Below, piece after piece: positions 56,764 to 64,000 of a DNA stretch of 64,000 nt. Origin of the DNA: Owenia fusiformis. Its lineage: Eukaryota; Annelida; Polychaeta; Sabellida; Oweniidae. Under the pieces are notes generated by a model. That model saw nothing but the letters and a program-made list of their open reading frames with translations. It did no database searches and was not told where the DNA came from. The position numbers and the translations under genes are program-made. The stretch is from NCBI GenBank assembly GCA_903813345.2, contig CAIIXF020000004.1, forward strand, positions 8,513,525 to 8,577,524. Direction: 5' to 3'. Every line of letters starts with the position of its first letter. The first letter of the stretch is position 1.

Positions 56764-57103
56764 GTGAGTACGAACTATTTTTAATTTTAACATCAAATTT
56801 CTTATATATTTTATGCTTGGTGTAATGACATTTTATTTTTCATTAATTTCTTTCTGTTTCTGTTCGTAATTGGCACTTTTGTATTCGATGACATTTTGGA
56901 CTTCAAAACGTCGTTTTCAAGTACTCTACGAATATTATTTTCACAGTAAAGTTATCAGATTAGCATATTAAACATTTTTTTATTTAAATTCCAAAGCAAA
57001 AAATAAAGAGGAGACAGGGATAATTCCTTGAAAATAATCAATTATAATTTTACATTTTTATCTTTACATTTTTATCTCAAACATATTTTTCTACAAGTAC
57101 AAT

Positions 57104-57264
57104 ACAGGGTGGGTCAACAATTGGAAATTTTTTATATTTATTCGATTGTCTTTATTTTTGCAGTTTAATCCACAAACATTCAGATAATGGTAGAATGATT
57201 ATTTGTGAAAATGTTAAAGAAAATTGAATAAATAAATGTTCCAATTTTTATTGGCCCACCCTGT
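57104..57264. mobile_element. mariner-type MITE upstream of the nuclease gene
   Basis: ACAGGGTGGGTCAACAATTGG at the left; CCAATTTTTATTGGCCCACCCTGT at the right, with imperfect arms continuing inward (AATAAATAAATG / TTTATTCG). TA precedes the left end; the right flank is TTA. It resembles the element at 50140 in its CAGGGTGG end but the interior differs. Confidence 0.65.
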
Positions 57265-57579
57265 TATGTATATTTAAAAAAATGCTGATTGGGAACGTAT
57301 AATTTTGAGAGAAAACCAAAAGAAAACAGTTTACTTAGAAATACCAAGTATTCCGCACAGTTTATTTTCAACTTGTAAGCTATTAGATAGATACCAGATC
57401 TGATAAAATGTATCACCCCACCCATACGATGGGTGAAATGATCATTCTTGTCAGGGATTTCGTGCAGTGTCATTTTTAATATCGCATTGCATCAATAATG
57501 GTGTCCAACACAATTACCACAGAACCATTTAGTTTGTTCACCATATTGCTTTATAGCTAATTCGTGAAAGTGTATAAAA

Positions 57580-58303
57580 ATGGCTATTTGGGAAGTACTT
57601 CTTGGTTCCTTTATATTTGCGACATACTTGGCCGATACTGTTGCAGTTCCAACAGTTTTGCCCGTCAATTCTTATCGAGATAGTCGTGATACAGCACCAG
57701 TTAATTGCTACGGAACTCTCTTGGCCGAAACAGCCCTTCTAGTACCTGCATCCTGCGTATACGACCGTAAAAACAGAAAGCCACATCGTACTATCAAAGT
57801 CAACAATGTGGCCATCGGCAATACGAAGTCAGTTGTACATGTCTCTTCAACGTGGTTGAAAAAGGGGCATCCTTCCTACAACATCGCCCTGGTTATTATC
57901 CCCACCCAGCAGTCAACTCCTACTACAAAGCTCACATGGAGCCCATATTCCATTGAACAAATCGAGGTGAAGCTGAAATCGTCAACGAAAGCATACGCGG
58001 GCTGTGCAAGTTTAAAGAAGCTAGGACCTGCCTTGGATGAAATGGGAGATCGTATGATTCCTTTTAAATGTACCAATCTGGCCACACCAGAAAAACAAGG
58101 AGCCCCGGTATTCCAGACAAATAATGGGATCGATGAGGTTTTTGGGCTGTATAACGGAGCATGCACCATAGGCTGGGGTCTTAAGAGTAAAAAGGGACAC
58201 TGCGGCGTAAGACTTACGAAGACAACATTTGATGAAATTTGCGCTGTGGCCATAGCTAAAAGTCTAACCGTCAAAGGCTGTAAAGATATGTTATTAACAA
58301 AAG
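57580..58303 (+). CDS. Exon 1: signal peptide and inactive trypsin fold
   Basis: Residue correspondences to chymotrypsin-type proteases: C43-Y-G-T-L-L ... L-V-P-A-S58-C59-V aligns with CGGTLI...LTAAHC, so the catalytic His is Ser58. Y-N101-I-A-L-V aligns with the D-I-A-L-V segment, so Asp is Asn101. E-K-Q173-G-A-P aligns with GDSGGP, so Ser is Gln173. All three catalytic residues are lost while the frame is intact, meaning a maintained pseudoprotease rather than a pseudogene. No intron interrupts it, unlike most animal trypsin genes. Confidence 0.75.
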
Positions 58304-61300
58304 GTATGTAGAATATCATTTAAAAAAAACTTTAAAATGCTATTATGACTTGATGTAGCTTTAGCAGTTGGAATTCTTTTAACATTACAACAAAATTACT
58401 TTGCATCATTTCGGTGCTTGATGACAAGACCGACGACTTCGACATGTTTTGTGAATAATGAAAATTGATGCCATTCATCAAAATCATTTAGTGCTCTATT
58501 GGCACCTGTCCAGAAATTCAGTACCTTTTGTTAGCCTATAAATTGAAAATACAGTATCATGCCATATTAAATAGGAAACTTGAAGATTTCAACTCTTGCT
58601 ACATGTATACATAATCTTCAGGTACGGGGGATCCAGAACCAACAGTTATTAGGACATATCAGGGATACACTGCAGTCGTCAGTATACCAATAGCAAGCCG
58701 AGGCCTGTTTCTGAAGTTCTGTCCAGCAGATGGTAATGCTATATACTACTATAAATTATTGTTTAAAAATGATCAGGATATTTAACTTCAAATATATAAT
58801 GGTTATTAACTGAAAAATCTATTTATGAAGCATTTTTGGTCACCTTGTGTCATTTAGTTTTTGGAAAGCACTCGATCATTCGTAAACCTGGTCAGCCATA
58901 CACTTGCATAGGTGTCTTTCTACAAAGAATGGGTATCGATATGGCGAACTTTTTGAACACACGTTTCTCTTAAACCAGTCATAAAAAAATTCTGAACATT
59001 TTAAACATTGTCAATGTAATGGTCACCTTTTGAATGGTAACAATATAATTTGAAATAGATATGTATACTTTTCTCTATATTGTTTTAGAAACACATCGGA
59101 CACTACTTTTGTTCTTGGTATCATATGTTCGGAATGAAATGAAACATCTATCCGAACCTCATTGAAACAAAATGACACAACGTGTTTATGTCTCTCAATA
59201 TTGCAATTATACAAAGGATAGTTTGGTTGATTTAAAAAAAGTATCTTGTAAATGAAATTAAAGGTTTATCTTAGTTTTTATCTATTTTGGGTTTTTTTGT
59301 TTTAATTTTTTGTATACTTTTTGTTTAATCAACCAAAATTTCCTTTGTACAAATATAATATTGGGAAGACTAAGAAAATGTTGTATATGCTATTTTGTTC
59401 GAACAAGATTCGGAAAGATATTTTATTTCATTCTCAAGAAATGGTAAAAAGAAACAAAAAACAATTAAAATTGCAGCAAAAAACAAAAAATGTGAACAAA
59501 AAACAGTAATATAAAATAAATATGAATTATTTTCGCATTGAATTGTTGTCAATCAGTCAACATTACATAAAGGACCGTGTTTTTTACAGAATGTTTTCAA
59601 TGATTGGTTTAAGAGAAAAACATTGTTGAATTCAGTTCTCCATATCAATACCAATCTTTTTTGTAAAATTCACTGATTGAAAACCGACATTTTTTATGTC
59701 GATCGCACCCCCTGACTGAAAGCTGGCTACGCCCCTGCATAGTCATAGTAAATCGCAAACATATTTCGCAAGCCATGTAATAAGTATGAATTTGTCTTAC
59801 TTAAGGTTGTTGTGGGGCAAAGTCTACTCTATTTGGTCAGATGCAGACAATACCAAGTCTCATCAATGAAACAGTGGTGCGCCAGATTAATATGGTGAAC
59901 TTTTCGTTGAATGTGGATGCTACCCCGGCAATGTTGTATCGTCCACAAGGGAAGGACTTTTACTTAGAATACAAAGGAAGGCTTACTGACTTTATGAAGT
60001 GGAAGGCTGAGTAAGTTGTTGCGAATATACTAATAGTGGAGTGTTAGTCTTCTGTCTTCTGTCAGTCTTATGTTTGTCTTCTTTGTCGTACTATTTAAAA
60101 CCCTCGGATAATTACTACATATAATTTTCTCAAAGGTGCTTTCATTAATATGATTCCGTTATTTTATATTTCACGTTTTGCATATATAAAATAAACATTT
60201 TAAAATAATATAGAATATTTTATTATTACAGAACCACTAAAGATATTAATGCAGGTAAGCTAAGCTAGAATACCTGTGTCAAATATGTAATATATATGAT
60301 TAAACAGACCATACCTGATTGTTTACAAAGTAACGTACTTTATAATGTAGTTACATCACTCTACTATACCTAACCCCTAGAAATGCATAAGATACTCTGT
60401 TTGCATTTGTCTAATTGCATTGTTTAGTATATTTTTGAAAGTACCTTATTAACATCTAACTTCCAACCAATAAACCATTAATAAGGAAAAGCCAAATAAA
60501 AACAAATAACATAATCATTACTAATAAGCCAAATGGGTTGCTCATGAACACCAAATGCAAGGTATAGTAGAATGTACATCGAATCATATTGCAGGTAGAA
60601 TTCGTCGTGGATCTGATGTTGAACGTCCTGGAAAAAGAAGAAAAGTACCAACATTAACAGATACTAGAAATGCTGAAACTTGTCCAATCGCAGGTGTGTA
60701 CGACTAATTTAGAGATGCTACTGCGAATGAAAATAATATCCACTTATTCGAGTTAACATTTCAAATTTACTTTGCATGTTGTTCGTTTTCACCTTGTATA
60801 ATGAATTGTTATATTGTAATCGTAGACTTATTCACGCAACATCAAATCACGAGTACTTCTTTTTACTTTAGTGAACAGGTTTAGCAATGTTCCATCATAT
60901 TGTTTGTATGGATTCCACAAAGATTCATACACACGTTCCGACCTTAGTATAAAAGATTTGGAGAACGAGTGCAAGGAAAAATGCACCAAAGACGATGTTG
61001 ACACGGTAATGTATTCCATACGAGTACTGCTCAAAACCATCATACGACCAGATATGCTGGTTTCAGCCTCGGCCCTGTCATTTGTAGATAATTTTGTAAA
61101 GTAAAATAAAGAAACCATAAAAACTAAAATCATACGACCATCTCCTTGATGTGCTCCAAGCATGATCAATGGAATTACATATTTTCTTTTCATTTAGACA
61201 ATAGTTTTAAAAATACAAAACAATATACATTATATATTACCATAAGCTAATTCGAAATAAATCTAGAGAATTAATTCCAACACTTTTCTTTATTCAAAGT

Positions 61301-64000
61301 GCATGATGTGCTATTACCTTTAGGGACGATGTCTCGTGACAGTTACAGATGGTGCATTTGAAGAAGATGAACCTAAGGCTGAGTCGATCGACCAACAAGC
61401 AGACGAGTGTTCCGAATATATGAAAGAATATAACATTTGTAATGTATGTGTTCCTTTGTTATGTTTTATTATAGTCCTCCATAATATACTCACAGAACAA
61501 GTGATTATTGAAATACATATTTTTCCCAGAAGAATTTTCCCCTTAGATTGTGATAATGGTTCATCTTGAATGGTAGGGGAGGGGGCCATGGCTCAGTTAC
61601 AAACAAACAGTGTTGCCAGAACTTCTTTTCTTCTAATTTGGTGCACTTATTAAACAATCATACATTGAGGAGTGACATAAATTTCAGGAACATAGCATTA
61701 ATATAGCCAAAGGACCTATTATGATTTGGTGAACACAATTCAACATTTTTTTCTCTTAAACCAGTTATCGAATCGAAAAATCTCAGTGTTGAAAATAGCT
61801 TAATGTATAAGAAGAAATTAACGGAAAATCACCCATGCCTTACATCTCCCTCGACAAGAAAAATCTAGTTGCCCAATCAGTCATCATTAGAACACAACTC
61901 CCACATTTCCGAAACCACAATCCACAATGAATCATCGTTTAATATCCCTACCATTCAAGATCCAATATCACAATCAAATATCAGAACACCAAAGGATATT
62001 TCATTCATTCTGAAACCTTTGTACGTGTGGAAAGACGATCTACTAAAGATATAAAATTATATTAGTCGAAAATATTTGGAGATACAATTTACATGTGCAT
62101 ACGATATAGAACATTAAGTCTCCAATAAAGTGATTATGATATCATCCAGTCTCAAAGAATCTCAATAAGTAAAAGTAAAACATTTAATGTGACATTTTTA
62201 ATCTCTGAAAAACTTTTATTTCAGTCCAAGGATATTTCTGACTGCGAAATTGTAGGTGTCAAGCGTGAGCGATCTAAGAGGCTCATAGAAACTCCTTCGT
62301 AAGTTAATAAACAAAAAGTCACTTTAAAAGAGGTAAAATGCCATAGCTAATAGTTGAACTTCCTTGCCTGCATAGCTTTTGTTTTGTAATTAAAAAATCT
62401 CATTTCTGTATATATATATATATTTCATATTGTTGCTTAATTACTCATTTATTGTTTATTGTGGAATCTTTAAAAATTGTATTACCCATATTGTTCCTCG
62501 AAGACGTAATCAATAATGTGATGATATAACGTCAATCATTATACGAAACATAAGAAGTTCATCTTTGCATGCAGATAGAATAGCGGTAATGGAAGATTTA
62601 GGTTTATGGGAGATACACCATGGCCTCTCATATCGCAGATACCAAATTGTAACGTCATGTGATCGCAGTAATAGGCCTACTTTTTTCGTTTTTATTGTAG
62701 ATGGAACAACTGTAAGCAATTCTTCCTCGGTGAGAAGCCTCCAAATTTTCCGACTGGTTCGTCCAGCAACCACAAGAAGATATGTCAGGTTAGTAAAATC
62801 ATACTTTAAATGAGTAAGAAATGTGAATGCTGTGTCATATGATTCAAGGTCACATTCATATATGATGACTTTATTCTGACCATTATTACAACATGCTTCA
62901 TTTCAAGAGTCATTTCAAGTCATCAGGATAGCTTAGTAAAATTATGAATCCATTCTTTGAAAACCTTAAGGACCGTATATCATTAATTTTTTCTCAATAT
63001 CTTACTTTTCTAAAAATGACCTCTCTTTTCTAGTTTTTCTCGTATGCTGGGTAGACTACTTGACGGCCATTTTGAATTTTTTGGTAAAGGGTGAGATATT
63101 TATCATCGTGTGTCTTGGGCGATATTTTGAAAAAAAAGTTAATGTAGAGTCCCAATCCATTGTTTGAGAGACCTACATTAATACTTGGAAGAAACAATTT
63201 AAAATACAATCTCCGATTCTGTACATCACGTCATTTTTACGGTTTTAAAGATATCGACTTTTAAAAATGTTATGCGATGAAAGCACCTCTTTAAATCCCC
63301 TTTGTTTTCATTTTATGAAAACGAGGCTGTATTCGCGGATGCAACTATCGGCTACCGGGTTGGCTGCAATTTACATTGCTTATTTTCTTATATCTACAAT
63401 TTTCCATCCGTGCCGCAAGTGAAGACTTTGAAAGCTGGCATTAACATTTCAGCCCATCATATGTTACGCCTTGTCGTCGTATTCATTCTAATGAGAAATG
63501 CTGTTATATTGGAAGGCAAGGACCAAAAAGGAAATATATGTGACCTATATGCAATACTTACTGATGTAAACTATTTGAGACTCAAAACCAAATTAAACCA
63601 TATTAGATTGTCACTTCAAAATTACATGAAATATTTTAGGACTTGAATGAAAAAAATCCAACCAAATTCTACTACGCGACATTGTATGATACTAGTCGCA
63701 AGATACCTCATTGGTCCGCCTATAAAGTGACAAAAGTTTGTCCGCCGGGATATTCACCACGACCTTCCTATTGGAGAAAGGATAATGGTAAAAACTCTAT
63801 CAATGATTTATTATTTTTTAAAGCATGAAACTTATATCATTTTTTAATGTTGAGCAAGAGCAATGCATACAGTTGTTAGATTTTACATTCGCTTAATTTA
63901 AACTGAGTATTTGACAAATTGTTTTAAAAGGTTTGGGTTGTTCAGATCAGGCGAATGATGCTCATTATACCAATAAAAATAAAGGCAAAAACGATAAGCA
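57580..64000 (+). CDS. Secreted pseudoprotease-endonuclease fusion (5' part)
   Basis: Coding exons: 57580-58303, 58622-58732, 59806-60010, 60232-60254, 60595-60693, 60872-61005, 61324-61443, 62225-62298, 62701-62788, 63640-63787, and 63931 onward past the window. All borders are GT-AG with consistent phases, about 598 residues so far. Domains: signal peptide 1-22; trypsin-like fold about 25-235; a small beta-rich segment about 243-346; a basic, Cys-rich linker about 347-496; and the N-terminal part of an ENDOD1-type DNA/RNA non-specific endonuclease from about 500 ('CKQFF....PP', 'KKICQ', 'YYATLYDTSRKIPHWSAYKV'). The trypsin triad is replaced. RIRR (356-359) and RSKR (488-491) fit furin cleavage. 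The nuclease active site (usually an (D/E)RGH-like motif) would lie beyond the window, so activity cannot be judged. Probably a secreted DNA- or RNA-degrading protein. The start has AAAAATGG context. Confidence 0.8.
58952..59640. mobile_element. ~0.7-kb foldback element in intron 2
   Basis: A long imperfect palindrome. TTCTCTTAAACCAGT near 58965 is matched by TTGGTTTAAGAGAAAAACA near 59605. Toward the centre TACAAAGGATAGTTTGGTTG and ATTTAAA (59210-59235) are matched by TTTAATCAACCAAAATTTCC (59324 on). The two opposite-strand frames at 59023-59214 and 59321-59509 give related peptides only because of this palindrome. A third end of the same type (TTCTCTTAAACCAGTTATCG) is at about 61750 in intron 7. 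Confidence 0.7.
60357..60574. mobile_element. Intact 218-bp MITE in intron 4
   Basis: Terminal inverted repeats CACTCTACTATACCT (left) and AGGTATAGTAGAATG (right), with one mismatch. TACAT occurs on both sides (60352-60356, 60575-60579). It ends 20 bp before the exon 5 acceptor. The split copy at 41195-41828 belongs to the same family. Confidence 0.75.
61444..62224 (+). other. Intron 7 of the nuclease gene
   Basis: Starts GTATGT, ends TTATTTCAG. It contains one end of the foldback family seen at 58952-59640 (near 61728-61766). The open frame at 61869-62054 lies in this intron, with no recognisable domain and no splice-compatible role that I could find. Confidence 0.5.
62701..64000 (+). CDS. 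Exons 9-11: start of ENDOD1-type nuclease domain
   Basis: Exon 9 (62701-62788) has 'WNNCKQFFLGEKPPNF' and 'KKICQ'. Exon 10 (63640-63787) has 'FYYATLYDTSRKIPHWSAYK'. Exon 11 (63931 on) has 'LGCSDQANDAHYTNKNKGK'. This order C-x-x-F-F...P-P...K-I-C-Q, then A-T-L-Y-D-T-x-x-x-I-P-x-x-S-A-Y, then a Q-A-x-x-x-D/H-Y segment, is that of endonuclease domain-containing 1 (ENDOD1)-like proteins. In these the catalytic His motif follows a few residues later, outside this window. Confidence 0.8.
62789..63639 (+). other. Intron 9 of the nuclease gene
   Basis: Starts GTTAGT, ends ATATTTTAG. It holds a ~90-bp repeat (63037-63135) related to 24690-24780. The 114-residue open frame at 63302-63646 is intronic, has no recognisable domain and runs over the exon 10 acceptor, so I leave it out as a gene. 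Confidence 0.5.

What the first reader, a model, noticed from the sequence alone, without database searches (positions are those of the whole stretch)
57580..64000. Pseudoprotease fused to an ENDOD1-type nuclease
One spliced gene links a signal peptide, a trypsin fold with the catalytic His, Asp and Ser positions changed to Ser58, Asn101 and Gln173, a Cys-rich basic linker, and an ENDOD1-like nuclease domain. Proteases and such nucleases are common separately; I do not know this fusion as a described architecture. The dead protease may act as a targeting, inhibitory or partner-binding module for a secreted nuclease. That role is inference.
Basis: partly seen in the sequence, partly recalled or inferred. 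Interest (0 to 1): 0.75.

Follow-up and report, generated by a model that had tools for sequence, protein, structure and literature searches.

The report
Dead protease fused to secreted nuclease
One animal gene, present in three related copies in this genome, joins a protease-like domain that can no longer cut proteins to a DNA/RNA-cutting enzyme, with likely furin cut sites between them, suggesting that the dead protease is a removable escort or muzzle for the nuclease.

Summary
A 15-exon model (window 57580 to 66354 if numbering is continued) has GT-AG introns, matching phases and a stop, giving 766 aa: signal peptide, degenerate trypsin-like domain, an unnamed module, a Cys-rich linker and an Endonuclease_NS nuclease (Pfam 1.3e-32) with its catalytic DRGH, Asn and Glu. 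Two older paralogs (about 37 kb away on C4, and on C8) keep the same order of domains and most exon boundaries and phases. Exon 1 is conserved as strongly as the nuclease (dN/dS about 0.16 for both, dS above 1). So the fusion is a real, selected architecture. Only the N-terminal half of exon 1 is demonstrably trypsin-related; Gln173 = Ser195 rests on reading by eye, and both structure predictions failed. All three copies lack the catalytic His and any GDSGG motif. New here: furin-type sites flank the linker (RIRR359, RSKR491), the first kept (one copy KIRR) in all three copies, the second in the two where that exon was found. I infer a secreted pro-nuclease whose pseudoprotease part is cleaved off. 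Trypsin-Endonuclease_NS fusion is described in bacteria; I found no animal case in the papers searched, and animal proteomes could not be searched.

The parts
57580..58303 (+). Exon 1: signal peptide (about aa 1-22, by eye) and degenerate trypsin-like domain (aa about 25-241)
   Evidence: 62 and 64% identical to the two paralog exons; dN/dS 0.16 against the C4 paralog
57748..57756 (+). A57-S58-C59, the counterpart of the trypsin AAHC motif (catalytic His replaced by Ser)
   Evidence: aligned with 13 trypsins of the same genome; Ser/Thr/Ser in the three copies
57880..57882 (+). Asn101, counterpart of catalytic Asp102 (Asp in the C4 paralog, Asn in the C8 paralog)
58096..58098 (+). Gln173, tentative counterpart of catalytic Ser195
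   Evidence: by eye only; the C-terminal half is not significant against a trypsin profile, but no GDSGG motif exists
58622..58732 (+). Exon 2, first part of an unnamed module found only in the three fused genes
59806..60010 (+). Exon 3, rest of the unnamed module
60232..60254 (+). Exon 4, 23-nt micro-exon; counterpart of the same length in the C8 paralog (ISKEIAA) and a likely one in the C4 paralog (IDTEIAA)
60595..60693 (+). Exon 5, begins the Cys-rich linker
60597..60608 (+). RIRR (aa 356-359), furin-type site; RLRR and KIRR in the paralogs
60872..61005 (+). Exon 6, linker
61324..61443 (+). Exon 7, linker
62225..62298 (+). Exon 8, end of the linker; holds the second furin-type site
   Evidence: C8 counterpart GKPDCKTRKRPRDKRFVDDH with GTAAGT donor
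62270..62281 (+). RSKR (aa 488-491), furin-type site just before the nuclease; RDKR at the same place in the C8 paralog
62701..62788 (+). Exon 9, start of the nuclease region
63640..63787 (+). Exon 10, Endonuclease_NS domain
63931..64000 (+). Exon 11, part inside the window; it continues to 64094 (locus L004) with DRGH (aa 601-604). Exons 12-15 follow at continued positions 64293-64395, 64580-64634, 65843-65948, 66208-66354

Best explanation
One gene encodes a secreted pre-pro-nuclease. Shown by sequence: signal peptide (by eye), a catalytically dead trypsin-like domain, an unnamed conserved module, a Cys-rich linker between two furin-type sites, and an Endonuclease_NS nuclease with its catalytic residues. 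Inferred: the precursor folds in the secretory pathway with the dead protease domain and module acting as a pro-region that helps the disulfide-rich nuclease fold and keeps it in check or steers it. A furin-type convertase then cuts at RIRR359 and RSKR491, releasing a mature nuclease of about 275 residues that degrades extracellular or phagosomal nucleic acid, probably in defence or digestion.
For: 15-exon model with consistent phases and a stop. Full nuclease domain with counterparts of the NucA/Serratia catalytic residues R602/H604, N626, E644. Three copies with the same order. Exon 1 and nuclease both under purifying selection, dN/dS about 0.16 with dS above 1. Eight Cys of exon 1 are kept in all three copies. 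RIRR/RLRR/KIRR in the three copies inside a poorly conserved linker, and RSKR/RDKR in the two copies where exon 8 was found; two or more R-x-[K/R]-R motifs occur in 1.9% of shuffles.
Against: No transcript or protein data. Cleavage is predicted from motif only, KIRR of the C8 copy is not the full consensus, and exon 8 was not identified in the C4 paralog. Nothing shows inhibition or chaperoning by the dead domain. The copies may share the sites by descent rather than by selection.
Confidence: 0.45

Rival explanations
1. The dead protease domain is a lasting binding or targeting arm, as in serine protease homologues, that stays attached (directly or by disulfides) and brings the nuclease to microbes, DNA nets or a partner.
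For: The domain is conserved as strongly as the nuclease, as expected for a binding surface. Loss of catalysis with keeping of the Cys pattern is typical of serine protease homologues (own knowledge). The linker is Cys-rich, so cut pieces could stay linked.
Against: Two furin-type sites between the modules suggest separation. No surface patch or ligand could be tested because structure prediction failed.
Confidence: 0.33
2. The whole protein is a pseudo-enzyme or decoy in which the nuclease is also inactive or being lost.
For: C8 paralog has HKGH in place of DRGH, and neither its exon 13 nor its last exon was found in the sequence searched.
Against: The window gene has intact DRGH, Asn and Glu; the C4 paralog keeps GRGH; nuclease exons have dN/dS about 0.17 between these two.
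Confidence: 0.1
3. Exon 1 is not a full trypsin fold: only its N-terminal 65-80 residues resemble trypsin and the rest is something else.
For: C-terminal half no better than shuffled controls; AlphaFold mean pLDDT 32 and 40; Foldseek best E 0.16, on a model built with trypsin rows.
Against: Trypsin-like N-terminal barrel is significant; total length fits a two-barrel domain; weak collinear match of GAPVFQTNNGIDEVFGLYN to GGPL...EVFGI of chymotrypsin C in two searches.
Confidence: 0.12
4. Two neighbouring genes (a secreted pseudoprotease and a nuclease) were joined by mistake.
For: No transcript evidence is on hand; a read-through of exon 1 meets a stop within a few codons of its donor site, so a short separate protein is conceivable.
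Against: Same order, boundaries and phases in two old paralogs with different intron lengths; exons 2-7 are also constrained; no copy of exon 1 or of exons 2-3 stands alone in the genome at E 10.
Confidence: 0.04

Closest known systems
Endonuclease_NS secreted nucleases: Anabaena NucA, Serratia nuclease (PDB 2o3b, 1zm8, 1g8t) and the two stand-alone nucleases of this genome at C4:4324368 and C4:6885067
   Same: Nuclease domain, DRGH-type motif, Asn and Glu positions; 39% identity to the stand-alone animal copies
   Different: Those have no protease-like domain, module or linker; the stand-alone genomic copies are encoded in a single open frame
ENDOD1 (human endonuclease domain-containing 1)
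   Same: Signal peptide and a single endonuclease domain (PMC9126970)
   Different: [quoted passage not shown] here the nuclease is C-terminal after about 490 residues and no C-terminal hydrophobic stretch is seen
Bacterial Trypsin-Endonuclease_NS protein of Fusobacterium nucleatum (NP_604177.1, in PMC2605481)
   Same: Protease-family domain and Endonuclease_NS in one protein
   Different: Bacterial, annotated as trypsin; not compared residue by residue here; the passages read mention no linker with furin-type sites
Serine protease homologues (SPHs) of invertebrates
   Same: S1-like domain with lost catalytic residues in a secreted multi-domain protein (own knowledge)
   Different: SPHs are typically joined to clip or other recognition domains; a nuclease partner was not found in the papers searched

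Membership tests
Endonuclease_NS (PF01223) nuclease | Significant full-domain profile match | tested here: met
   E 1.3e-32, 113.7 bits against a cut-off of 23, aa 534-730
Endonuclease_NS (PF01223) nuclease | Catalytic Arg/His of DRGH, Asn and Glu | tested here: met
   R602/H604, N626, E644 aligned with NucA
ENDOD1 family | Closer to ENDOD1 than to other Endonuclease_NS proteins in a tree | not tested
   No animal ENDOD1 sequences were available in the collections
ENDOD1 family | C-terminal transmembrane segments (as in human ENDOD1) | tested here: not met
   No C-terminal window among the most hydrophobic ones; comparison from PMC9126970
S1A serine peptidase (PF00089) | Homology over the whole domain | tested here: inconclusive
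   N-terminal half significant via paralog and profiles; C-terminal half not
S1A serine peptidase (PF00089) | His57, Asp102, Ser195 and GDSGG motif | tested here: not met
   His replaced in all three copies, no GDSGG or IVGG
S1-type pseudoprotease (serine protease homologue) | S1 ancestry with loss of the catalytic triad, conserved by selection | tested here: met
   ancestry shown for the N-terminal half only
Furin-processed proprotein | R-x-[K/R]-R motif in a secreted precursor, kept in relatives | tested here: inconclusive
   RIRR/RLRR, but KIRR in the C8 copy; RSKR/RDKR in two copies, exon 8 of the C4 copy not found
Furin-processed proprotein | Actual cleavage | not testable with these tools
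   Needs protein data

The most novel reading that the evidence does not exclude
An animal lineage turned a trypsin-like protease into a removable pro-domain (intramolecular inhibitor or chaperone) of a secreted nuclease, making a furin-activated nuclease zymogen, an arrangement not described for Endonuclease_NS enzymes in the papers searched.
Probability: 0.3. Interest if true: 0.65.

Novelty: new variant of a known kind. Interest (0 to 1): 0.5.

Why it matters
Secreted nucleases must be made without harming the cell that makes them. A conserved dead protease fused ahead of a nuclease, with likely cut sites between them, is a testable candidate for a built-in restraint and for how pseudoproteases gain new jobs. 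If the furin reading is wrong, it remains a new animal domain combination (as far as could be searched) of moderate interest.

Tried and rejected
Pfam and PDB sequence searches of exon 1 alone gave no trypsin match; the paralog and profiles were needed. AlphaFold with 3 and with 16 sequences failed (pLDDT 32 and 40), and Foldseek on the second model had no significant match; not used as evidence. The unnamed module and linker had no Pfam or PDB match. Trypsin-profile test of the C-terminal half failed. Exon 8 of the C4 paralog and exons 13 and 15 of the C8 paralog were not found. A first frame for exon 11 of the C4 paralog had stops; it was an artefact of asking for a GT donor: the exon has an in-frame AG acceptor and a GC donor. 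A two-gene artefact was considered and rejected on conserved phases.

Full report
CHECK OF THE OBSERVATION. The window is C4:8513525-8577524 of a 498-Mb assembly. Reading on past its end (L004) gave a complete model: 15 exons from window 57580 to 66354 in continued numbering (C4:8571104-8579878), every intron GT-AG, every phase matching, 766 aa and a stop. Exons 1-10 and part of 11 lie in the window. Pfam finds Endonuclease_NS at aa 534-730 with E 1.3e-32.

ONE GENE. A search of the genome with exon 1 found two more copies, 66% identical on C8 and 65% on C4 on the opposite strand. Both are followed by the same series of exons, with the same phases at most boundaries. A 23-nt micro-exon has a counterpart in the C8 copy with a GTAAGT donor, and a likely one in the C4 copy. 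The C4 copy has one GC-AG intron and, most likely, an extra intron after a separate signal-peptide exon. Neither exon 1 nor the exon 2-3 module was found elsewhere in the genome. Separate genes joined by mistake would not give this pattern three times. Transcripts could not be checked.

THE PROTEASE-LIKE DOMAIN. The window exon has no Pfam trypsin match, but the C4 paralog does (PF00089, 1.8e-8), and a profile of 13 trypsins of this genome matches all three copies in the N-terminal half. AAHC has become ASC, ATC and ASC; the Asp102 position is Asn, Asn and Asp. The C-terminal half is not detectable by profile and scores no better than shuffled sequence, so Gln173 as the Ser195 position is tentative. 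No copy has GDSGG, SGG or IVGG. Eight cysteines are kept in all three. Two structure predictions failed and the fold search was not significant. Dead protease is therefore well supported; full trypsin fold is likely but not shown.

SELECTION. Between the window gene and the C4 copy, dN/dS is 0.16 for exon 1, 0.17 for the nuclease exons and 0.18 for the middle, with dS of 1.2 to 2.8 (NG86). dS is near saturation, so the ratios are rough, but the dead protease is kept about as strictly as the nuclease. Amino-acid identity in the linker is far lower (30-41% to the window gene in exons 5-7).

THE LINKER AND CUT SITES. The segment between the two sites (aa 360-491) is Cys-rich and has net charge -6, so it is not basic overall. 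At its start is RIRR359 (RLRR and KIRR in the copies) and at its end, just before the nuclease, RSKR491 (RDKR in the C8 copy). Two or more such motifs occur in 1.9% of shuffled versions of the protein. KIRR is a weaker furin site than R-x-[K/R]-R (own knowledge). Exon 8 of the C4 copy was not found. These sites suggest a precursor cut into a pseudoprotease-plus-module part, the linker and a mature nuclease.

MECHANISM. I favour a secreted pro-nuclease whose N-terminal part aids folding, restrains or steers the nuclease until cleavage. The signal peptide and cut sites are read from sequence; cleavage, restraint and a role in defence or digestion are inference. The chief rival is a lasting binding arm as in serine protease homologues.

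RELATION TO KNOWN FAMILIES. The nuclease is a member of Endonuclease_NS. Two stand-alone copies in this genome are 39% identical; others in the genome look like ENDOG/EXOG (by eye). The ENDOD1 label was not tested by a tree, and human ENDOD1 differs in having C-terminal membrane segments (PMC9126970). Trypsin-Endonuclease_NS in one protein is reported for Fusobacterium nucleatum (PMC2605481). Searches of open papers found no animal case, but animal proteomes were not searchable here, so absence elsewhere is not shown. An Endonuclease domain-containing 1 protein is among the top gill transcripts of a mussel (PMC4581086), which would fit a role at exposed surfaces but concerns another protein.

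VERDICT. A real, conserved domain fusion with an added clue of furin processing. Interesting and testable, with bacterial precedent for the pairing.

Noticed in passing
L007/L052 (C8:8344500-8361000): The C8 paralog has HKGH instead of DRGH, a weak exon 10 donor, and its exon 13 and last exon were not found; its nuclease may be decaying while its protease-like exon is intact.
   Followed up: partly
L003/L005/L021 (C4, 8603071-8616366 and upstream): The C4 paralog lies tail to tail with the window gene about 37 kb away (start of exon 1 to end of the window gene), most likely has an extra phase-0 intron between signal peptide and protease-like domain, and a GC-AG intron after exon 11.
   Followed up: yes
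L008 (C4:4324467) and L009 (C4:6885157): Two stand-alone Endonuclease_NS genes with apparent signal peptides, each in a single open frame, on the same chromosome, 39% identical to the fused nuclease.
   Followed up: partly
window 57085-57283: Inverted repeat (36 nt, 78%, 127 nt apart) with CAGGGTGGGTCAA / TTGGCCCACCCTG ends just upstream of the gene, like a small non-autonomous DNA transposon.
   Followed up: no
window 58964-59618: Intron 2 holds nested inverted repeats (arms 58964-58988/59594-59618, 59107-59173/59392-59458, 59193-59240/59319-59366), probably a foldback or mobile element.
   Followed up: no
L004:1204-2169: Intron 13 holds an element of about 0.95 kb with inverted ends TTGGGTGTCCCAAAAA / TTTTTGGGACACCC, like a mariner-type transposon remnant.
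   Followed up: no
L004:3626-4654: Arrays of CTCAACCCCAAGTCAA-type repeats form inverted arms of 140 nt, 96% complementary, downstream of the gene.
   Followed up: no
L025-L041 (C1, C2, C3, C5, C7, C11, C12): Many trypsin-like genes have the whole protease domain in one uninterrupted frame of about 360-400 aa; the ones aligned keep the catalytic His, Asp and Ser.
   Followed up: no
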